NCBI GenBank assembly: GCA_003695725.1
Contig: RFHX01000011.1
Span: forward strand, 1-8,655
Reading direction: 5' to 3'
DNA from: J061 sp003695725 [NCBI: Candidatus Schekmanbacteria bacterium]
GTDB lineage: Bacteria > Schekmanbacteria > GWA2-38-11
Length of the DNA: 8,655 bases
The translations under genes were made by a program, and so were the position numbers. Positions 314 through 8,655 of the stretch are shown in pieces; within the stretch, counting starts at the first letter, position 1, and each line of letters opens with the position of its first letter. The notes below the pieces were generated by a model. It worked only from the letters and a program-made list of their open reading frames with translations, made no database searches and was not told the origin of the DNA.

Positions 314-1726
314 ATGAGTCCCAAAGATGTGATGGAAATTATCAAAGAAAACAACATTCAAATGATTGATTTGCGTTTTATGGATTTCCCCGGTGTTTGG
401 CAGCATTTTTCAGTGCCTGTATCAGAGTTTAATGAAAACAGTTTTGAAGAAGGGTTCGGTTTTGACGGCTCAAGTATTAGGGGATGGCAGCCAATCAACG
501 CAAGTGATATGCTTGTAATCCCAGATCCCGCAACAGCAATGGTTGATCCAATATTAAAGTATCCAACTCTTGTTCTTATTTGCAACATAGTAGATCCAAT
601 TACAAAAGAAAAATATTCAAGAGATCCAAGGAATATTGCTCAGAAAGCAGAGAGTTATTTAAGATCGACACAAATTGCAGATACATCTTACTTTGGTCCT
701 GAAGCTGAATTTTTTATACTCGATGACATCCGATTCGATCAAAATGAACATCAAGGTTTTTATTTTCTCGACTCATCTGAAGGCCGCTGGAATAGCGGAA
801 AAGAGGAAAATCCAAATCTTGGATATAAACCTCGCTACAAAGAGGGATATTTCCCAGTACCTCCTACTGACAGCTTGCAGGATTTAAGGACAGAAATGGT
901 TCTTGAAATGCAGAAGGTAGGAATCGAGATTGAATGTCAGCACCACGAAGTGGCTACTTCAGGACAGGCAGAAATTGATATGAAATACAATACATTGACT
1001 GCCACTGCTGACAATTTGATGTGGTACAAATATATTGTCAAGAATGTAGCAAGAAGACATAACAAAACAGTTACTTTTATGCCAAAACCGGTATTTAGAG
1101 ACAATGGCTCTGGAATGCACACCCATATTTCATTGTGGAAGAATGGAGAACCACTCTTTGCAGGGAATGAATATGGTGGAATGAGTGAATTGGCTATGTA
1201 TTTCATAGGCGGCATTATTAAGCATGCACCTTCGGTTTGTGCCTTTGTAGCACCTACAACAAATTCATATAAAAGACTTGTACCGGGATTTGAAGCACCC
1301 GTCAATCTTGCCTATTCCTCAAGAAATAGAAGCGCAAGCATAAGAATTCCAATGTATTCTCCCAGTCCAAAGGCAAAGAGGATCGAAGTCAGATTCCCTG
1401 ACCCCTCATGCAACGGCTACTTGGCATTTGCAGCCCTATTGATGGCAGGACTCGACGGAATAGAAAACAAAATCAATCCGGGAGAACCTCTTGACAAAGA
1501 CATCTACGAATTAGGACCTGAAGAGTTGGCAGGTGTACCATCAGTGCCAGCTTCACTTGAAGAAGCACTAAATGCTCTTGAAGAGGATAATGAGTACCTT
1601 TTAAAAGGTGATGTTTTCACTCAAGATGCAATTGATATGTGGATTGAGTATAAAAGAACCAATGAAGTCGATGCAATGAGATTGAGACCTCATCCATATG
1701 AATTTGCTCTTTACTTTGATATTTAA
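314..1726 (+). CDS. glnA: Glutamine synthetase, type I (GSI-beta)
   Basis: This cytoplasmic enzyme joins ammonia to glutamate using ATP to make glutamine. At 470 residues it is the normal GSI length; active GSI enzymes are dodecamers. The N-terminal beta-grasp motif [11 protein letters not shown] is present, followed by the catalytic-domain motifs [20 protein letters not shown], the ATP-site motif [14 protein letters not shown], and [13 protein letters not shown]. The segment with FPVPPTD resembles the beta-subtype insertion. Tyr398 in [11 protein letters not shown] matches the adenylylated tyrosine of enteric GlnA (Tyr397 without the initiator Met), so covalent control is possible; no adenylyltransferase gene is in the window. 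The start is supported by AAGGAG at 301-306, seven bases before ATG. It is probably monocistronic, with a sigma-54 promoter upstream and a terminator downstream, which indicates nitrogen-limited induction. Confidence 0.98.
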
Positions 1727-1772: not shown

Positions 1773-1822
1773 AACACTGCCGGCTCTTCTTGATAAAAGA
1801 GTCGGTTGTGTTTTGTTTTTAT
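1773..1822 (+). terminator. Intrinsic terminator after glnA
   Basis: Arms at 1774-1788 and 1797-1811 pair over 15 positions with one mismatch and two G-U wobbles around an 8-nt loop, and A1773-T1812 extends the stem. A T-rich tract (TTTTGTTTTTATT) follows directly. It lies about 50 bp after the glnA stop and separates glnA from the glutamate synthase operon. Confidence 0.8.
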
Positions 1823-1946: not shown

Positions 1947-3320
1947 ATGGCTTTAAATGCGATTTTTTGGGGCTGTCAAATACCAGCGCGATACCCCTTT
2001 ATCGAAAAATCTTTAAGAAGGGTTTTCGAAGAGCTGGAAATCCAAATAATAGATATCGATGGATTCACGTGTTGCCCTGAAAGAGCGCTCATAGGCAATA
2101 TGAGTGAAGAGGTTTGGTATTTGACTGCAGCAAGGAATTTAGCAGTGGCGAGAAAGAACGCCGGGAAACCATTAACTCTTATTCAAGCCTGTAATGGCTG
2201 TTTCAGCACATTAAAAAAAGTAAAGGAAGATCTCGACCACGATTTAGAAATTAGAAAAAAAGTAAACAAAGGTTTGGGTCATATCGGCCTTCATTATGAA
2301 GGTGGCGTTGATGTAAAGCATATAGTTGAGTTCTTACACGATGTTATTGGTGCTGACACCATAAAAAATCGCGTTAAATCCTCTTTGAACGGATTAAAAA
2401 TAGCAGTGCATCCGGGATGCCATATGACGCGTCCCTCATCTGCTATAGAGTTTGACGATCCCCTTGTTCCAAAAAAGTTCGACCAACTTATAAAATCACT
2501 TGGAGCAACAAATGTAAACTATCCAAGCAAAATGCTTTGCTGTGGGGGAGAATTAACCAATATTGGCAATATGGATGAAGGTTTTGCAGTAACAAGACAA
2601 AAACTTATTGAAACGACTCGTTTGAATGTAGATGCACTTGCTGTTGCATGTCCGAACTGCTTCAAACAATTTGATAATCAGCAGTTTCTAATGCAAAGAA
2701 ACGGTGAAGAATTTGAAATCCCGGTGTTTTATGTATCAGAACTTTTAGGATTGGCATTGGGGATTGACCCAAAAGAATTGGGATTGGAAGGGCACAGGAT
2801 AAATACAGAAAGTTTCTTCAAGAGATGGAACGAAGAAAAAGAAAAGGCAGGAAAAGTAAAAGAATATTTTGATTTAGAAGCATTGAGGAAATGCTATGAA
2901 TGCAGAGCTTGCTTGGATGATTGTCCATCAGTCAAGCTTCTTGATAAATATGACCCTGTTACAATAATGGGGAAAGTGTTGGATGGAAAAATCGAAGAAG
3001 CAATGGAAGATAACGCCATCTGGGAATGCCTTGAATGCCATACTTGCAGCGAGCTGTGTCCTCAAGGATTTGGAATGGAAAAAGTATTTACTACCCTAAA
3101 ACATTTTGCAGGGGAAAAGGGGAAAAGGCCTGCTCCTGCAAAAAAAGGTATTGAAATGTTCGAAAAAACAAGCAAAATAGGCGAACCTTCAAAAGCTCAA
3201 AGGAAAAAGTTTAATCTTCCAGATACTCCATCAAGCGGTTTTGAAGACTGGAAAAAGATGATTGAAGCAATTCGTTCAAAAAAAGAAAATGAGGGAGATG
3301 AAATTTTAAATGAACCATAA
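1947..3320 (+). CDS. HdrB-HdrC fusion iron-sulfur protein, heterodisulfide-reductase-like
   Basis: This 457-residue soluble protein combines a heterodisulfide reductase B-like part (about 1-270) with an HdrC-like ferredoxin part (about 310-385). The B part has two full CCG motifs: C10, C42-C43, C82/C85 and C158, C198-C199, C235/C238. In methanogen HdrB these bind non-cubane [4Fe-4S] clusters that cleave the CoM-S-S-CoB disulfide. The C part has two CxxCxxCxxxCP motifs, C316-C326 and C361-C371, for two cubane clusters. The last 70 residues are charged and unassigned. No flavin-binding or membrane segment is visible. AAGGG at 1936-1940, six bases before ATG, supports the start. It heads the operon, and its end overlaps gltB1 by 11 nt. 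In this bacterial setting I infer an electron-transfer or thiol/disulfide role for glutamate synthase; the actual substrate is unknown. HdrA is absent nearby. Confidence 0.88.
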
Positions 3321-4407
3321 TTACCAAAAAGACATATCAGGATGCGGGCTGTCAGGACTGATTAGTCGAAGCAAAAAAAGAATTCCCGGTGAAGTAATTA
3401 TCAAGTCTATTTGTCCTATGAAGGATAGGGGTAACGGACTTGGCGCAGGATTTGCCGCATACGGAATTTATCCTGATTATAGCGATTATTATGCGTTTCA
3501 TATAATGTATGATCACGGCACTGCAAAAGACATTGCAGAATCCTTCATTGAAGCAAACTATGAGATAGCTAAGCAGGAAAGAATTCCACATAAAAAGACT
3601 GAAAATATTGTCTATCATCCTATGCTTTACAGATATTTTGTTAAGCCAAAGGATAAGAGGCCTGATTCCCAATTTGCTGAGCTCGAAGGCGATGATTTTG
3701 TCGTGCGCACTGTAATGAATATCAATTCGAGTATTGAAGGAGCATATGTGTTTTCAAGTGGGAAAAACATGGGCGCTTTTAAAGGAGTTGGTTTCCCATC
3801 AGAAATTGCTGAATTCTATATGCTTGAAGATTATGCAGGCTACATTTGGACTGCTCACAATAGATTCCCTACAAATACTCCCGGCTGGTGGGGTGGTGCG
3901 CATCCATTTACGCTTCTCGACTGGTCAATTGTCCACAACGGTGAAATTTCATCATATGGCATAAACAAAAGATATTTAGAGATGTTTGGATACAGCTGCA
4001 CACTTTTAACGGATACGGAAGTTGTAGCTTATCTTTTTGACTTAATGGTAAGAAAGCATGGCATTAGCTTCAACATTGCCTGTAAAGCCCTTGCAGCACC
4101 TTTTTGGAAAGATATCGATGCGCTTCCAGAAGAAGAAAGAGAGGCTTATACATGGTTGAGAATGGTATATGGTAGTGCTCTTTTGAATGGACCTTTTGCA
4201 ATTCTATTTGGACACAGCAATGGTCTGATAGGGCTTAATGATAGAATAAAACTGCGTCCACTTGTTTGCGCAGAAAATGGAGATATGGTTTATATGGCAT
4301 CAGAAGAATCAGCAATCAGGGAAATTTGTCCAAAGCCGGAAAGAGTGTGGTATCCAAGAGCAGGAGAACCAGTAATTGTTAACCTGAATAGTGATGAAAA
4401 GAATTAA
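3310..4407 (+). CDS. gltB1: Glutamate synthase amidotransferase subunit (GltB1, class II)
   Basis: This is the stand-alone glutaminase module of a split archaeal-type glutamate synthase. It hydrolyses glutamine to glutamate and ammonia and passes the ammonia to the FMN subunit. It is an N-terminal-nucleophile amidotransferase: Cys12 in GCGLSG is the likely nucleophile, which implies removal of an 11-residue propeptide. Further class II motifs are HNRFPTN (183-189, substrate Arg185), HNGE (209-212, oxyanion Asn and Gly), TDTE (234-237), NGPFAILFG (293-301) and SEESAI (331-336). The ATG at 3310 lies inside the end of the HdrBC-like gene, and GGGAG at 3293-3297 sits 12 nt upstream, so coupled translation is likely. 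At 365 residues its length suits the separate domain. It could be mistaken for another class II amidotransferase, but the next two genes settle the assignment. Confidence 0.93.
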
Positions 4408-4409
4408 AA

Positions 4410-5915
4410 ATGAGAAAAAGCTACCTTATTCCAGAGTTTAGAGTCGAAATAGACCATACAAGATGCAGGCGGTGTAAGCGCTGTATAATGAATTGCAGTT
4501 ACGAAGCGCTTAGTTTCAGCGATAGAGTGGTTGCCGACCACTTTAAATGTGTTGCATGTCACAGATGTATCGTTTTCTGTCCTGAAAATGTAATAACTGT
4601 ACGAAAAAACCCTGTTGATTTCAAAGAAAGTTTCAACTGGACCAACAGGCATCGTTTAGATATTTGGAAACAGGCAGAAACAGGAGGCATTCCTCTTACT
4701 GGTATGGGGAATGATTTGCCCTATCAGATTATTTGGGACCATTTAGTCCTTGATGCCTGTCAAGTTACAAATCCTTCTATCGATCCATTAAGAGAACCGA
4801 TGGAATTGAGGACATATTTAGGGAAAAAACCTGATTCTTTGCAGTTTGAAGAAACAGCCGACGGAAAAATTAAATTAAAAGAAAAACCTCCCAAAAATAT
4901 AAAACTTGAAATGCCCGTTGTTTTCTCACCTATGTCTTATGGTTCCATTAGTTTGAATGCCCATAAAGCAATGGCGATGACTGCAAAGGAAATGGGCATT
5001 GTTATGCATACAGGAGAGGGCGGACTTCATAAGGATTTGTATGATTATAGTGACTATATGATTGTGCAATGCGCATCAGGACGATTTGGCGTTCATGCCG
5101 AATATCTTAAGAGAGGAATTGCAGTCGATATAAAAATAGGCCAAGGAGCAAAACCGGGAATAGGTGGCCATTTGCCGGGAGAAAAAGTCGGACTTGACAT
5201 TTCAAAAACTCGTATGATACCAATAGGCACCGATGCATTATCACCTGCTCCTCATCATGACATTTACTCCATCGAGGATCTCAGGCAGTTGATTTATGCA
5301 ATAAAGGAAGCAACTAATTACAAGCCGGTATCAGTTAAGATTGCAACTGTCCATAATGTTGCAGCCATTGTAAGCGGTATTGTCCGCGCTGGTGCTGATA
5401 TAGTTTATTTAGACGGTTTCAGGGGAGGTACTGGTGCTTCTCCCAAGATTGTTAGGGACCATGTTGGAATACCATTGGAACTTGCCCTTGCGGCAGTTGA
5501 TGACAGACTGCGTGAAGAAGGAATAAGAAATCAAGCATCAATTATAGCGGCAGGCAGTATTAGGTCAAGTGCAGACGCAATTAAAGCAATAGCTCTTGGT
5601 GCAGATGCCGTTGCGATTGGCACAGCGGCTCTAGTAGCAATTGGATGCAGAGTTTGCCAAACATGCCATATGGGTAAATGCGCATGGGGAATTGCAACAC
5701 AAAGGCCTGAATTAGCAAGAAGGCTTGACCCTGAAATTGCTGCCGAAAGACTTATTAATATGCTCAAAGCATGGAAATTTGAAATAAAAGAAGTTTTAGG
5801 AAGTCTTGGACTTAATGCTATTGAATCTCTGCGCGGCAGTAGAGAAAGATTGAGAGGTATTGGTTTAGACGCTCAAACATTGGATATTTTGGGTGTAAAA
5901 CCGGCAGGAAAATAA
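4410..5915 (+). CDS. gltB2: Glutamate synthase central subunit: two [4Fe-4S] ferredoxin plus FMN domain (GltB2)
   Basis: This synthase module reduces the imine formed from 2-oxoglutarate and ammonia to glutamate on FMN. Residues 15-62 form a two-cluster ferredoxin: C19/C22/C25/C29 and C47/C50/C53/C57. This is typical of archaeal-type enzymes and gives electrons an entry route. The FMN TIM barrel (about 165-440) shows PMSYGSIS, TGEGG (201-205), IKIGQGAKPGIGG, DGFRGGTGASP (335-345) and AAGSIRSS. C413-x5-C419-x4-C424 matches the [3Fe-4S] ligand pattern of glutamate synthases, with an extra Cys416. The start is 2 nt after the gltB1 stop with no strong Shine-Dalgarno sequence, so translation is probably coupled. 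The N-terminal ferredoxin and 501-residue length separate it from the 1500-residue fused bacterial GltB. The GltD-type NADPH partner is missing here. Confidence 0.95.
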   Translation: MRKSYLIPEFRVEIDHTRCRRCKRCIMNCSYEALSFSDRVVADHFKCVACHRCIVFCPENVITVRKNPVDFKESFNWTNRHRLDIWKQAETGGIPLTGMGNDLPYQIIWDHLVLDACQVTNPSIDPLREPMELRTYLGKKPDSLQFEETADGKIKLKEKPPKNIKLEMPVVFSPMSYGSISLNAHKAMAMTAKEMGIVMHTGEGGLHKDLYDYSDYMIVQCASGRFGVHAEYLKRGIAVDIKIGQGAKPGIGGHLPGEKVGLDISKTRMIPIGTDALSPAPHHDIYSIEDLRQLIYAIKEATNYKPVSVKIATVHNVAAIVSGIVRAGADIVYLDGFRGGTGASPKIVRDHVGIPLELALAAVDDRLREEGIRNQASIIAAGSIRSSADAIKAIALGADAVAIGTAALVAIGCRVCQTCHMGKCAWGIATQRPELARRLDPEIAAERLINMLKAWKFEIKEVLGSLGLNAIESLRGSRERLRGIGLDAQTLDILGVKPAGK

Positions 5916-5918
5916 TAT

Positions 5919-6749
5919 TTGAGAAATAAGAAAATGGATGCAGATACTTTGATAGAGTCAGGGAGAATCGAACCGGACAACGGAAAAGGAAAAATGGAAA
6001 AGCGTGAAAAAATAGTAATAGACGCAAAAGGTATCTATTACAGAGAATTAAATGAAAAAATCCGTGATGCTATTTACAATCTAAAATGTAAAGAAATTCA
6101 TCTCAATAATGTAAATGGTCAGCGCTATATTGGAGATGGGATTGAGGCAAAGGTAACCATTGTAATTAATGGTGTACCGGGGAATGACCTTGCAGCATTT
6201 ATGAATGGACCTACAATTATCGTCAACGATAATGCACAAGATGCAGTAGGCAATACGATGAACAATGGTAAAGTAATTGTCAAGGGACATTCAAGCGATG
6301 TCATTGGATATGGAATGAGAGGAGGCAAGATTTTCATAAAAGGTGATGTAGGATACAGAGTTGGAATTCATATGAAAGCTTATAAAAACACCGTGCCATA
6401 TATCATCTGTGGCGGAAGAGCAGGTGATTTTTTAGGTGAATATATGGCAGGAGGAGTTCTTGCCGTTTTAGGACTCGATGAAAATGATAATAGACCCCTA
6501 ACCGGTGATTATTTAGGTACAGGCATGCATGGAGGAGTTATATACATACGCGGTGAAGTCGATGAAAGGACACTAGGCAAAGAGGTTGGAATTGTGGATT
6601 TTACTGAAAAGGATATGCAAGAATTTGGAAAAATCTTAAAGGAATATGCTGATGACCTTGACTTAGATTTTGATGAAATAATGTCAAAACCATTTACAAA
6701 GATTGTCCCCATAAGCCATAGGCCTTACGGAAAACTTTATAGTTACTAA
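5919..6749 (+). CDS. gltB3: Glutamate synthase GXGXG-domain subunit (GltB3)
   Basis: This is the third module of the split glutamate synthase. It is a right-handed beta-helix domain that in fused GltB is structural and holds the other domains together. The repeated Gly-rich pattern is clear: GNTMNNGKVIVKG, GYGMRGGKIFIKG, GEYMAGGVLAVLG and GTGMHGGVIYIRG, at about 110-215. The start is uncertain. A TTG at 5919 has AGGA (5906-5909) upstream at good spacing and lies 3 nt after the gltB2 stop. ATG codons at 5934 and 5994 are also in frame, and the conserved part begins near residue 31. The first 30 residues are charged and poorly conserved in appearance. It is the last gene of the operon and is followed by a terminator. 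No catalytic function of its own is expected. Confidence 0.92.
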   Translation: MRNKKMDADTLIESGRIEPDNGKGKMEKREKIVIDAKGIYYRELNEKIRDAIYNLKCKEIHLNNVNGQRYIGDGIEAKVTIVINGVPGNDLAAFMNGPTIIVNDNAQDAVGNTMNNGKVIVKGHSSDVIGYGMRGGKIFIKGDVGYRVGIHMKAYKNTVPYIICGGRAGDFLGEYMAGGVLAVLGLDENDNRPLTGDYLGTGMHGGVIYIRGEVDERTLGKEVGIVDFTEKDMQEFGKILKEYADDLDLDFDEIMSKPFTKIVPISHRPYGKLYSY

Positions 6750-6759
6750 AGAATAATAA

Positions 6760-6794
6760 AAAATCCCCCTCACATCAAAAGTGAGGAGGATTTT
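6760..6794. terminator. Bidirectional terminator between convergent gltB3 and the radical SAM gene
   Basis: Arms 6760-6773 and 6781-6794 form a 14-position stem around a 7-nt loop. In the rightward RNA there is one C-A mismatch in the middle; in the leftward RNA the same position is a G-U wobble, so the stem is complete. T runs flank both sides: TTTTCTTT for the rightward transcript and TTTTTTATTATT for the leftward one. It therefore suits both genes, probably better for the minus strand. Confidence 0.85.
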
Positions 6795-6810
6795 CTTTCA
6801 AAAATTCCAG

Positions 6811-8190
6811 TTAATTTCCTGATACTGAATGCTGTGGTTCTTGAATAGATTCTCTGATATTCTCCTTGCTTAAATAGTCGCGCCGCCATACTTCATCAGC
6901 TATCTTGCCAAATTCTTCTGCATATTTATCGAGCTCAGGCGCCATATCTGTTACTAGTGCTTCTCCTCCATCTTGAGTAGCTTTTGCATTACAGCTATGA
7001 ACAACCTCACGAAGTACATTGGGATTATCGATAATTAGGCAAGGTTTTAAGCGATTCGTAATGCCCTCCTGCTTTTCTCTAATAGCTTTAAAGAAGTCTG
7101 ATTTCAAAACTTCCACAAGTGTTTTTTCTTTTATGTTGTCGACTGCAAATTGTGAAAAAACACAAGGTTCTACATCTCCATTGGAATTTATATGAAAATA
7201 TACACGCGCAGAAATGCATCCGCCAACTGATGGACCGTCATTCCAGAAGTCGGCAAGGACAATGGGTTTTCTTTTCCTCATCTCCATTATCCTTTCCCTT
7301 CTTTCCATTCTCTGTCTTGCAGTAGGCATTAAATCAAGGGAAGGACATCTGCCAATGGGCATATAGCTAAAATACCAAGCAATAAAGCATCCTTTTTCAA
7401 TCCAAAAATCTACGAATTCTTCACTTGAAACAAGTTCATTATTTTCTCTCGTTGTCGTAACTGAAATACCGTATAAACAGCCCGCATCTTTTAAGGCACT
7501 CATTGCATCAAGAATATTATTAAATGTCCCTTTGCCTCTCCTCCTATCGGTTTCTTTTTCAAATCCTTCTACACTTATACAGGGAAGAACATTTCCAAGC
7601 TTTGATAATTTTGAGGGAAGGTCTTTTTTCAAAATCATCGAACCATTATTATAAACCTGAAAATATACATCCGGATGTTTTTCAAATATATCCAGAATAT
7701 CATCTCTTAAAAATGGCTCTCCGCCTGAAATGACAACAAAATAAATGCCATATCTTTTCCCTTCTGTAATGACTCTATCAATCACATCAAAGGGCAAATC
7801 GTTTTCTTTGCTGTAATTGCCTGAATAACAACCATAACATTGTAGATTACAGCGCATTGTTGGGCTTATTACCATCAAAAGAGGTGGATAAAAACCTTCT
7901 CTCTTCAAAAAATCTTCCCTTCTTTTTGTACTCAAAAATCCAAGATTGCAAAAAAGGTTGACTGCCATTTTTTCTCTTACGGGTTTTGAACATTTGGGAA
8001 AGAAGCGTTTGCTGTTTAATATTATACTCTTTAAAAAATCGCGCCCTTCTTCATATTGAATGGCATTTATATAAGGACTTAAAGAAGATATTAGTTTTTC
8101 ATCAGAAATATGATTAGAAAAATTTGCTAAATACTTGAAAGTTTGTCTGTAAAAGGAATCTTTAATATCTCTTACACTATTCATAGACAT
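6811..8190 (-). CDS. Radical SAM protein with C-terminal cysteine-rich (SPASM/twitch-like) region
   Basis: A 459-residue radical SAM enzyme of unknown substrate. C114-x3-C118-x2-C121 binds the SAM-cleaving [4Fe-4S] cluster. GGEPF (156-160) is the SAM-binding motif, and the barrel continues through SVEGFEKETD near 206-215. After the barrel, C325, C343 (NSNGDVEPC), C384 and C400 could ligate one auxiliary cluster, as in SPASM or twitch domains; seven-Cys SPASM is not met. Residues 1-100 look helical and match nothing I can name. No signal peptide or membrane segment is visible. GGAGGGAGG (8199-8191) abuts ATG 8190, and the ATG at 8184 (third residue) has better spacing, so the true start may be two residues later. 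It is convergent with the glutamate synthase operon and probably unrelated in function. No peptide-precursor gene is seen beside it. Confidence 0.88.
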   Translation of the reverse strand: MSMNSVRDIKDSFYRQTFKYLANFSNHISDEKLISSLSPYINAIQYEEGRDFLKSIILNSKRFFPKCSKPVREKMAVNLFCNLGFLSTKRREDFLKREGFYPPLLMVISPTMRCNLQCYGCYSGNYSKENDLPFDVIDRVITEGKRYGIYFVVISGGEPFLRDDILDIFEKHPDVYFQVYNNGSMILKKDLPSKLSKLGNVLPCISVEGFEKETDRRRGKGTFNNILDAMSALKDAGCLYGISVTTTRENNELVSSEEFVDFWIEKGCFIAWYFSYMPIGRCPSLDLMPTARQRMERRERIMEMRKRKPIVLADFWNDGPSVGGCISARVYFHINSNGDVEPCVFSQFAVDNIKEKTLVEVLKSDFFKAIREKQEGITNRLKPCLIIDNPNVLREVVHSCNAKATQDGGEALVTDMAPELDKYAEEFGKIADEVWRRDYLSKENIRESIQEPQHSVSGN

Positions 8191-8317: not shown

Positions 8318-8655
8318 TTAGAACTTTTTCCAAATTTTAAGCAGTTTTTCATAAATCTTATCTTTTTCATTATATCTAAATTCGCTCTCCTTTAAATGCA
8401 GATAGAACGCTTTCTTAGGTATTCCATTGAATTTCGACAACCTTCTCTTGACATAGCTCCAGAAGCTTTCTGCAGAATCCAACGCTCTTCTTCTTTGCTC
8501 ATCATATTTAACCCTATAGTGCTTAATGCCGTCTATGATGATTGATTCATATTTTTTTAAAAAATCCAAATTATTCAATCTGTTTTCATTGAGATATTTT
8601 CTTAGATTTCTTTTAAAATCAAAAGAATTAATGCTTTTCACAATCTCTGTACAGA
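8318..8655 (-). CDS. IS1595-type transposase, C-terminal part (runs off window)
   Basis: The segment from GIKHYRVKYDE through AESFWSYVKRRL and FNGIPKKAFYLHLKESEFRYN is the characteristic C-terminal end of IS1595 (ISXO2-like) DDE transposases. The ESFW glutamate corresponds to the last catalytic acid. An ATG at 8641 would give 107 residues, too short for this family (about 200-330). The reading frame stays open upstream to 8655, so the gene probably continues past the window and 8641 is not its true start. Just upstream of the conserved part, residues 1-35 look divergent, so the copy may be degenerate. No terminal inverted repeat was recognised between its stop and the radical SAM gene. Confidence 0.72.
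   Translation of the reverse strand, partial: CTEIVKSINSFDFKRNLRKYLNENRLNNLDFLKKYESIIIDGIKHYRVKYDEQRRRALDSAESFWSYVKRRLSKFNGIPKKAFYLHLKESEFRYNEKDKIYEKLLKIWKKF

What the first reader, a model, noticed from the sequence alone, without database searches (positions are those of the whole stretch)
1947..6749. HdrB-HdrC-like protein in place of an NADPH subunit at the head of a split glutamate synthase operon
Seen: an iron-sulfur protein with two CCG and two ferredoxin motifs overlaps gltB1 and precedes gltB2 (with its own two-cluster ferredoxin) and gltB3. No GltD-like NADPH flavoprotein is present. Known: CCG clusters in HdrB reduce disulfides, and glutamate synthase needs two electrons per glutamate. 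Inference: electrons may reach GltB2 through HdrC-like and ferredoxin clusters, from ferredoxin, an HdrA/Mvh- or Flx-type complex, or a dithiol. Alternatively the CCG part is a redox switch. This would be a distinct electron supply for ammonia assimilation.
Basis: partly seen in the sequence, partly recalled or inferred. Interest (0 to 1): 0.75.

Follow-up and report, generated by a model that had tools for sequence, protein, structure and literature searches.

The report
Glutamate synthase powered through disulfide-reductase module
A key ammonia-assimilating enzyme carries, in place of its usual NADPH-using partner, a protein built like the enzyme that handles disulfides in methane-producing microbes, and in related bacteria the same genes sit beside a set for a lipoic-acid electron carrier, which suggests an unrecognised way of powering nitrogen assimilation.

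Summary
The window carries hdrBC-gltB1-gltB2-gltB3. HdrBC is an HdrB-HdrC fusion with both complete non-cubane cluster motifs and two ferredoxin motifs; its HdrB domain is modelled within 1.7 A of solved HdrB. GltB genes lie within 1 kb of it in 74 of the 80 best loci, from archaea and several bacterial groups. HdrBC and GltB2 distances track closely (r 0.92, 31 loci). Among 45 genome handles no full-length GltB was listed, and all 37 strong full-length GltD-like hits are NfnB beside NfnA.

New here: in a Bacillota survey (16 of 398 genomes have HdrBC), dihydrolipoyl dehydrogenase lies in the same cluster in 15 of 16, a free lipoyl domain just before hdrBC in 10, lipA in 5, lipB in 4. In five genomes that domain is the only lipoyl acceptor I found. 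I read HdrBC as a dithiol-driven electron entry: NAD(P)H, Lpd, lipoyl protein, HdrB, HdrC, GltB2.

No lipoyl gene adjoins the operon in the window's own lineage, so the donor there is inferred. Nothing biochemical has been shown.

The parts
1947..3320 (+). HdrB-HdrC fusion (457 aa), proposed dithiol-to-one-electron input module of the glutamate synthase
1974..2201 (+). first CCG motif of the HdrB domain (C10, C42, C43, C82, C85): first non-cubane [4Fe-4S] site
   Evidence: sequence; (PF02754); conservation
2418..2660 (+). second CCG motif (C158, C198, C199, C235, C238): second non-cubane [4Fe-4S] site
   Evidence: sequence; conservation
2892..3059 (+). HdrC-like domain ligands, two [4Fe-4S] motifs (C316/319/322/326 and C361/364/367/371)
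3310..4407 (+). GltB1, class II glutaminase; conserved Cys12 is the likely N-terminal nucleophile after removal of an 11-residue propeptide (inferred)
4410..5915 (+). GltB2, FMN/[3Fe-4S] glutamate-synthase domain with N-terminal two-cluster ferredoxin domain
4464..4580 (+). ferredoxin-domain ligands of GltB2 (C19/22/25/29, C47/50/53/57), proposed bridge from HdrC to the [3Fe-4S]/FMN core
   Evidence: (invariant in 5 rows)
5646..5681 (+). [3Fe-4S] ligands of GltB2 (C413, C419, C424)
5919..6749 (+). GltB3, GXGXG domain (listed from a TTG; an ATG at 5934 is in frame)
314..1726 (+). glnA, type I glutamine synthetase, same strand upstream; probably its own transcript
   Evidence: (TIGR00653 over cut-off)
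1779..1806 (+). terminator-like hairpin between glnA and hdrBC
6758..6796 (.). terminator-like hairpin after gltB3, matches on both strands

Best explanation
The four genes encode one glutamate synthase complex. GltB1 releases ammonia from glutamine, GltB2 (FMN, [3Fe-4S]) makes glutamate from 2-oxoglutarate and ammonia, GltB3 holds the assembly, and HdrBC is the electron entry in place of GltD. HdrB oxidises a dithiol at its two non-cubane clusters and passes single electrons through HdrC and the GltB2 ferredoxin domain to the FMN. In the Bacillota relatives the dithiol is the dihydrolipoyl arm of a small lipoyl-domain protein, re-reduced from NAD(P)H by an adjacent dihydrolipoyl dehydrogenase. 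The window's organism (order of Candidatus Schekmanbacteria) most likely uses a lipoyl protein encoded elsewhere in its genome. Shown: genes, domains, ligands, linkage, co-divergence, absence of a detectable separate GltD, and lipoyl-gene linkage in Bacillota. Inferred: complex formation, direction of flow, and the donor in the window's organism.
For: GltB within 1 kb of HdrBC in 74 of 80 loci. HdrBC/GltB2 distance correlation r 0.916 over 31 thinned loci, 0 of 2000 permutations as high; GltB1/GltB2 gives 0.809. HdrB rows of this set split from 19 other HdrB rows with SH-aLRT 99. HdrB fold Z 38.8, rmsd 1.7 A over 288 residues to 5odc_B; HdrC part Z 10.8. No Glu_synthase match in a frame over 839 aa in 45 genome handles, 43 distinct; 37 of 37 strong full-length GltD-like hits are NfnB beside NfnA. 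Survey of 398 genomes of the phylum of L064: 16 have HdrBC; Lpd in the same cluster in 15, free lipoyl domain before hdrBC in 10, GcvH in 1, lipA in 5, lipB in 4. Two Lpd, one LipB and one LipA tested pass curated cut-offs. Lipoyl lysine present in all 13 listed sequences, 12 distinct loci. In G063, G078, G079, G102, G132 every other strong biotin/lipoyl hit is a biotin carrier and no GcvH was found. Window's genome: dihydrolipoyl dehydrogenase and glycine-cleavage GcvH over cut-off (L283, L288), and a GcvH-family protein with LplA-, LipS2- and LipS1-like genes near another HdrC-HdrB pair.
Against: No Lpd or lipoyl gene was found beside the operon in the window, its three Schekmanbacteria relatives, the archaea or the other bacterial groups: only 8 of the 80 loci show Lpd (9 counting L065 through its overlapping contig L180). 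G076 lacks Lpd there; G062, G162, G200 and G234 show Lpd but no lipoyl domain in the stretch. PF01597 (GcvH) gave no match in 5 of 34 genomes with the operon: G063, G069, G073, G075, G086; free lipoyl domains were not sought in the archaea. The 79-aa free lipoyl domain of the window's genome belongs to a 2-oxoacid-dehydrogenase-like cluster. The LplA-, LipS1- and LipS2-like proteins of the window's genome score below their cut-offs. The fusion is not universal: 13 loci have separate HdrB and HdrC frames. L138 lacks one HdrC cysteine. In L133 (same contig as L051 of G035) 2.1 kb after HdrBC holds no GltB. The system is uncommon: 16 of 398 and, outside the order, about 2 of 56 sampled genomes. 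No biochemistry.
Confidence: 0.6

Rival explanations
1. Reduced ferredoxin feeds the GltB2 ferredoxin domain directly, and HdrBC is a thiol-sensing redox switch or an outlet rather than the entry.
For: GltB2 has its own two-cluster ferredoxin domain, and ferredoxin-dependent glutamate synthases are well known (PMC8097209, passages). Other split GltB proteins carry such a domain without HdrBC (recalled, not tested).
Against: A switch would not need Lpd, a lipoyl domain and lipoate synthesis in the cluster, nor does it predict the tight co-divergence with GltB2 and the near-complete conservation of all ligands.
Confidence: 0.15
2. In the archaeal members (ANME-2, Methanoperedens, Argoarchaeum) and perhaps beyond, the donor pair is CoM-SH plus CoB-SH, so glutamate synthesis regenerates heterodisulfide; lipoyl use is a Bacillota specialisation.
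For: The fold and ligands are those of methanogen HdrB; no lipoyl gene was hit beside the operon in the archaeal loci; three archaeal genomes gave no GcvH. Heterodisulfide chemistry is HdrB's known reaction.
Against: Other archaeal members do carry GcvH-family proteins, some with LplA-like and radical SAM genes. It cannot apply to the window's organism if that lacks CoM and CoB, which was not tested.
Confidence: 0.12
3. An HdrA-containing bifurcating or confurcating complex (HdrA with MvhD, Flx or hydrogenase) hands electrons to HdrBC.
For: HdrA-, HdrB- and HdrC-like genes lie beside the operon in L069, L083 and L098; the window's genome has HdrA-like and VhuD/MvhD-like genes elsewhere (L055, L056).
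Against: In those three loci HdrA comes with separate HdrB and HdrC; the HdrA marker gave no hit in the stretches held of the other 77 loci, many of which are cut short; HdrB here is a distinct group.
Confidence: 0.08
4. The lipoyl genes of the Bacillota clusters serve an unrelated enzyme and lie there by chance or co-regulation.
For: Most loci of the 80 lack them.
Against: The genes recur in differing gene orders (lipoyl domain before hdrBC in ten survey genomes, GcvH after gltB1 in L113), and five genomes show no other lipoyl acceptor.
Confidence: 0.05

Closest known systems
NADPH-dependent glutamate synthase GltBD (PDB 6s6s, 2vdc, 7mfm)
   Same: glutaminase, FMN/[3Fe-4S] synthase and GXGXG domains; three [3Fe-4S] cysteines conserved
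   Different: large subunit split into three genes, GltB2 has a fused ferredoxin domain, GltD replaced by HdrBC
Putative F420-dependent glutamate synthase of methanogens and ANME (FrhB-like subunit)
   Same: glutamate synthase with a separate electron-input subunit (PMC3087415 passages; PMC9012536 passages)
   Different: the input subunit is an FrhB-type protein for F420H2; no FrhB family was hit in the window
Heterodisulfide reductase HdrB/HdrC (5odc, 7bkb, 8rvu) and HdrD
   Same: both CCG motifs, HdrC motifs, HdrB fold at 1.7 A
   Different: HdrB at the N terminus fused to HdrC, no HdrA or cytochrome partner in the operon, tied to GltB; below the HdrB equivalog cut-off
sHdr-LbpA sulfur-oxidation system
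   Same: HdrB-type clusters paired with a lipoyl protein; the Discussion of PMC6067878 proposes Hdr-like, dihydrolipoyl, Lpd, NADH
   Different: there electrons run from sulfur towards NAD+; here they would run from NAD(P)H to glutamate, and no HdrA or LbpA is in the window operon
HdrL and type III HdrA with a GltD-like domain
   Same: an earlier known meeting of Hdr and glutamate-synthase parts (PMC12054007 and PMC2702500 passages)
   Different: there a GltD-type NAD(P)H domain is joined to HdrA; here HdrB-HdrC stands with the GltB core and no GltD domain

Membership tests
Glutamate synthase (GltS) | class II glutaminase domain with conserved catalytic cysteine | tested here: met
   PF00310 over cut-off; Cys12 invariant in 5 of 5 aligned rows; propeptide removal is inferred
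Glutamate synthase (GltS) | FMN synthase domain with three [3Fe-4S] cysteines | tested here: met
   PF01645 457 bits; all 11 GltB2 cysteines in 75 of 81 loci with a hit; five others are cut, and in L113 the contig ends before the gene
Glutamate synthase (GltS) | GXGXG domain | tested here: met
   PF01493 over cut-off in GltB3
NADPH-type GltS (GltBD) | GltD partner | tested here: not met
   none in window; the only full-length GltD-like hit of the genome is NfnB beside NfnA; the genome is 97.8% complete
Plant/cyanobacterial ferredoxin-dependent GltS | single ~1500-aa chain | tested here: not met
   three genes of 365, 501 and 276 aa
F420-dependent GltS | FrhB-like subunit | tested here: not met
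   no FrhB family among the seven window ORFs scanned with Pfam; neighbourhoods of relatives were not scanned for it
HdrB of heterodisulfide reductase | two complete CCG motifs and HdrB fold | tested here: met
HdrB of heterodisulfide reductase | curated equivalog score (TIGR03288, 345 bits) | tested here: not met
   254.4 bits
HdrB of heterodisulfide reductase | HdrA or HdrE partner | tested here: not met
   none in the operon; HdrA-like hit beside it in 3 of 80 loci, with separate HdrB and HdrC
HdrB of heterodisulfide reductase | CoB-S-S-CoM reduction | not testable with these tools
   biochemistry needed
Lipoyl-linked Hdr systems (sHdr-LbpA) | lipoyl protein encoded with the Hdr genes | tested here: inconclusive
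   met in most Bacillota relatives, not in the window operon

The most novel reading that the evidence does not exclude
A further electron-donor class of glutamate synthase: lipoyl-protein (dithiol) dependent, with HdrBC as converter. In some Bacillota lipoic acid would be made and reduced solely for ammonia assimilation, and in ANME archaea the same module may oxidise CoM-SH and CoB-SH, coupling nitrogen assimilation to reverse methanogenesis.
Probability: 0.5. Interest if true: 0.88.

Novelty: new variant of a known kind. Interest (0 to 1): 0.78.

Why it matters
Glutamate synthase is one of the main gates of ammonia into biomass, and its known or proposed donors are NAD(P)H, ferredoxin and F420H2. 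A dithiol-driven form would add lipoic acid, so far tied to 2-oxoacid dehydrogenases, glycine cleavage and sulfur oxidation, to nitrogen assimilation. It would give HdrB-type clusters a biosynthetic role, and answer how several uncultured groups and methane-oxidising archaea in which no GltD was found feed the enzyme. The gene neighbours make it directly testable.

Tried and rejected
A separate GltD elsewhere: not found in the window's genome or, among strong full-length hits, in the sampled relatives. Loose ends: L179 in G081 (621 aa, 38% to NfnB, no NfnA hit), and hits in pieces in G035, G065 and G081:C259 that were not fetched. A canonical long GltB: none among the listed matches of 45 genome handles, of which two pairs (G003/G061, G014/G088) are one genome each. 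The free 79-aa lipoyl domain of Schekmanbacteria as dedicated donor: it lies between E1-beta-like and E2-core-like genes (labels mine), so it was not counted. The viral-contig scan found nothing. Lipoyl/biotin sorting used a motif pattern of my own; some of its LIPOYL-like lines were biotin carriers matched elsewhere and were read as such. In the five genomes weak partial hits were checked only in part (L300, L301, L303, L306, L307; not G078:C18 and G102:C15). Genome completeness of those five is not told. The AlphaFold model is of one chain; no complex was modelled.

Literature: ten searches. Searches (glutamate synthase, lipoamide, HdrB; five phrases) returned no paper; in the passages I read I saw no HdrB-with-GltB enzyme and no lipoyl- or dithiol-dependent glutamate synthase. 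Most listed papers were seen as listings only, and only open-licence PMC papers were searched, so this is not proof of absence. Read: passages of PMC9012536, PMC12054007, PMC2702500, PMC3087415, PMC9295563, PMC7325909, PMC8097209, PMC10332631, PMC4378227; outline and first part of the Discussion of PMC6067878.

Rows dropped and limits: the genome scan kept the best 80 of 151 confirmed loci and its patterns came from members mostly seen beside GltB, so the linkage figure is biased upward. Tree 110 to 91 rows by near-identity, quick method. Distance test 74 to 31 loci. Alignment A5 omits L080, L123, L083, L089, L097 and L134. Searches used the genomes of 40 of the 80 loci plus five others; one search used 34.
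Full report
What is there. The 8655-base window is a whole contig of a 374-contig genome of 97.8% estimated completeness. A relative in the same order, G003, shows the same hits and the same contig as the genome of Candidatus Schekmanbacteria GWA2_38_11 (L063), so the window belongs near that group. The finding's genes are real and in the stated order: HdrB-HdrC fusion, GltB1, GltB2 with a ferredoxin domain, GltB3, all on the + strand, with an 11-base overlap between the first two. glnA lies upstream but a terminator-like hairpin separates it. A hairpin follows gltB3.

The HdrBC protein. Residues 5-294 align with solved HdrB chains (best E 4e-61) and residues 304-402 with HdrC. The AlphaFold model (mean pLDDT 89.8) matches 5odc_B at Z 38.8, 1.7 A over 288 residues, and an HdrC chain at Z 10.8, 3.8 A over 149. 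Both five-cysteine CCG motifs and eight ferredoxin cysteines are present; all 18 occur in 87 of 92 stretches, four of the other five being truncated and L138 having lost one (some stretches repeat a contig). The protein scores below the HdrB equivalog cut-off (254 against 345 bits), so it is HdrB-like and not a certified HdrB. The fusion is common but not universal: 63 of the 80 loci read through in one frame by my test; of 17 flagged, 13 are clearly two genes and four (L063, L075, L080, L083) seem flagged by a stop at the end of the match.

The glutamate synthase. GltB2 aligns with the synthase domain of solved GltS large chains and keeps the three [3Fe-4S] cysteines and its own eight ferredoxin cysteines in 75 of 81 loci with a hit; the other six are cut by an end of the stretch. 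GltB1 and GltB3 have the expected domains.

Conservation. A scan of 84,980 species genomes with a six-row HdrBC alignment confirmed 151 relatives and returned the best 80, from Methanoperedens and other ANME-2 archaea, Argoarchaeum, Schekmanbacteria, Armatimonadota, Bacillota, Deltaproteobacteria-labelled and unnamed bacteria. GltB genes lie within 1 kb of HdrBC in 74 of 80. Of the six others, L064 has gltB3 2.4 kb away and ends 222 bases after HdrBC; L123, L131 and L132 end within 124 bases of HdrBC; L065 overlaps by 80 bases a contig of the same genome (L180) that holds GltB1-3 and Lpd; L133 has 2.1 kb without GltB. HdrBC distances follow GltB2 distances (r 0.916, 31 loci, 0 of 2000 permutations). 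In a tree of HdrB domains the 72 rows of this set separate from 19 other HdrB rows (SH-aLRT 99, quick method); the set includes L123, L131 and L133, for which no GltB neighbour was seen. The system is uncommon: in a sample of 60 genomes, strong fusion-length hits came from the window's order and from G014 and G035.

No separate NADPH subunit. In the window's genome the only full-length GltD-like hit is NfnB beside NfnA. In 45 genome handles (43 distinct) all 37 distinct strong full-length hits are NfnB beside NfnA. One weaker hit, L179, is not, and fragments in three genomes were not fetched. No listed Glu_synthase match lies in an open frame over 839 aa, so no canonical GltB was seen.

The lipoyl link. 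In Bacillota the same genes share a cluster with dihydrolipoyl dehydrogenase (TIGR01350 over cut-off in both tested). Of 398 genomes drawn from the phylum of L064 (labelled Clostridia), 16 have HdrBC at E 1e-70 or better. Among these, Lpd lies in the same cluster in 15 (not G076), a free lipoyl domain of about 77 aa just before hdrBC in 10, a GcvH after gltB1 in one (G090), lipA in 5 and lipB in 4. The order GltB1-GltB2-GltB3-Lpd-LipB-LipA-lipoyl domain-HdrBC occurs in L206 and L210 and across the two overlapping contigs of G063 (its record is labelled Deltaproteobacteria, but its HdrBC groups with Bacillota rows); L208 and L209 have the same genes in another order. Six free lipoyl domains tested match PF00364 over cut-off, and the lipoyl lysine is present in all 13 listed sequences, 12 distinct loci, three of them identical. 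In G063, G078, G079, G102 and G132 every other strong biotin/lipoyl hit is a biotin carrier by motif and no GcvH was found, so the domain in this cluster is the only lipoyl acceptor detected. Genome completeness is unknown there.

Mechanism. HdrB's known chemistry is two-electron disulfide/dithiol exchange at two non-cubane clusters, and HdrC wires it to one-electron carriers. GltB2 has a matching ferredoxin domain in front of its FMN domain. The lipoyl cluster supplies a reducible dithiol and the enzyme that reduces it from NAD(P)H. The lipoamide potential of -0.29 V (PMC6067878 Discussion) lies between NADH and 2-oxoglutarate/glutamate (recalled, about -0.12 V), so the flow is downhill. That paper proposes the opposite flow for sulfur oxidisers, from Hdr-like proteins through LbpA and Lpd to NAD+. 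Direct contact of HdrBC with GltB2 and the direction are inferred.

The window's own organism. No lipoyl gene adjoins its operon. Its genome does encode a dihydrolipoyl dehydrogenase and a glycine-cleavage GcvH over curated cut-offs (L283, L288), and a GcvH-family protein followed by LplA-, LipS2- and LipS1-like genes (below their cut-offs) near another HdrC-HdrB pair (L056). A lipoyl donor is therefore possible but not shown. In the archaea, CoM-SH plus CoB-SH is a serious rival donor.

Verdict. It is a new variant of glutamate synthase; the ten literature searches and the passages read showed no description of it.

Noticed in passing
window 6811-8190 (-): Radical SAM/SPASM protein, best model NirJ2 at 89 bits, far below cut-off; function open.
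   Followed up: no
window 8318-8653 (-): IS1595-type transposase fragment at the contig end, below the curated cut-offs.
   Followed up: no
L056 1-8626 (own genome, contig C166): HdrA-like, VhuD/MvhD-like, HdrC-like, HdrB-like, DUF3088, one further gene, then a GcvH-family protein and LplA-, LipS2- and LipS1-like genes: an Hdr cluster near lipoate machinery.
   Followed up: partly
L279 6507-6743, L281 8653-8889, L282 8989-9225: A free-standing 79-aa lipoyl domain gene beside E1-like and E2-core-like genes of a 2-oxoacid-dehydrogenase-like cluster in Schekmanbacteria; a similar PF00364 hit in G001 (E1/E2 labels are mine).
   Followed up: partly
L180 9851-11488; also L062, L068, L119, L207, L211-L213: A ~530-aa paralog of the glutamate-synthase domain (PF01645, weak; tested in L068) of unknown role near glnA or the GltS cluster.
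   Followed up: no
L047 2-2146 and G001:C3:219670-221465: A second glutamate-synthase-like cluster with GltB1-like and GltB3-like parts in one 715-aa frame.
   Followed up: no
L292 and L294 (ANME-type archaea): GcvH-family genes with LplA-like hits and further genes that look like radical SAM proteins; in G067 on the same contig as HdrBC-GltB.
   Followed up: partly
L069 12876-15904, L083 4240-7183, L098 3092-6194: HdrA-, HdrB- and HdrC-like genes next to HdrBC-GltB in three archaeal loci.
   Followed up: partly
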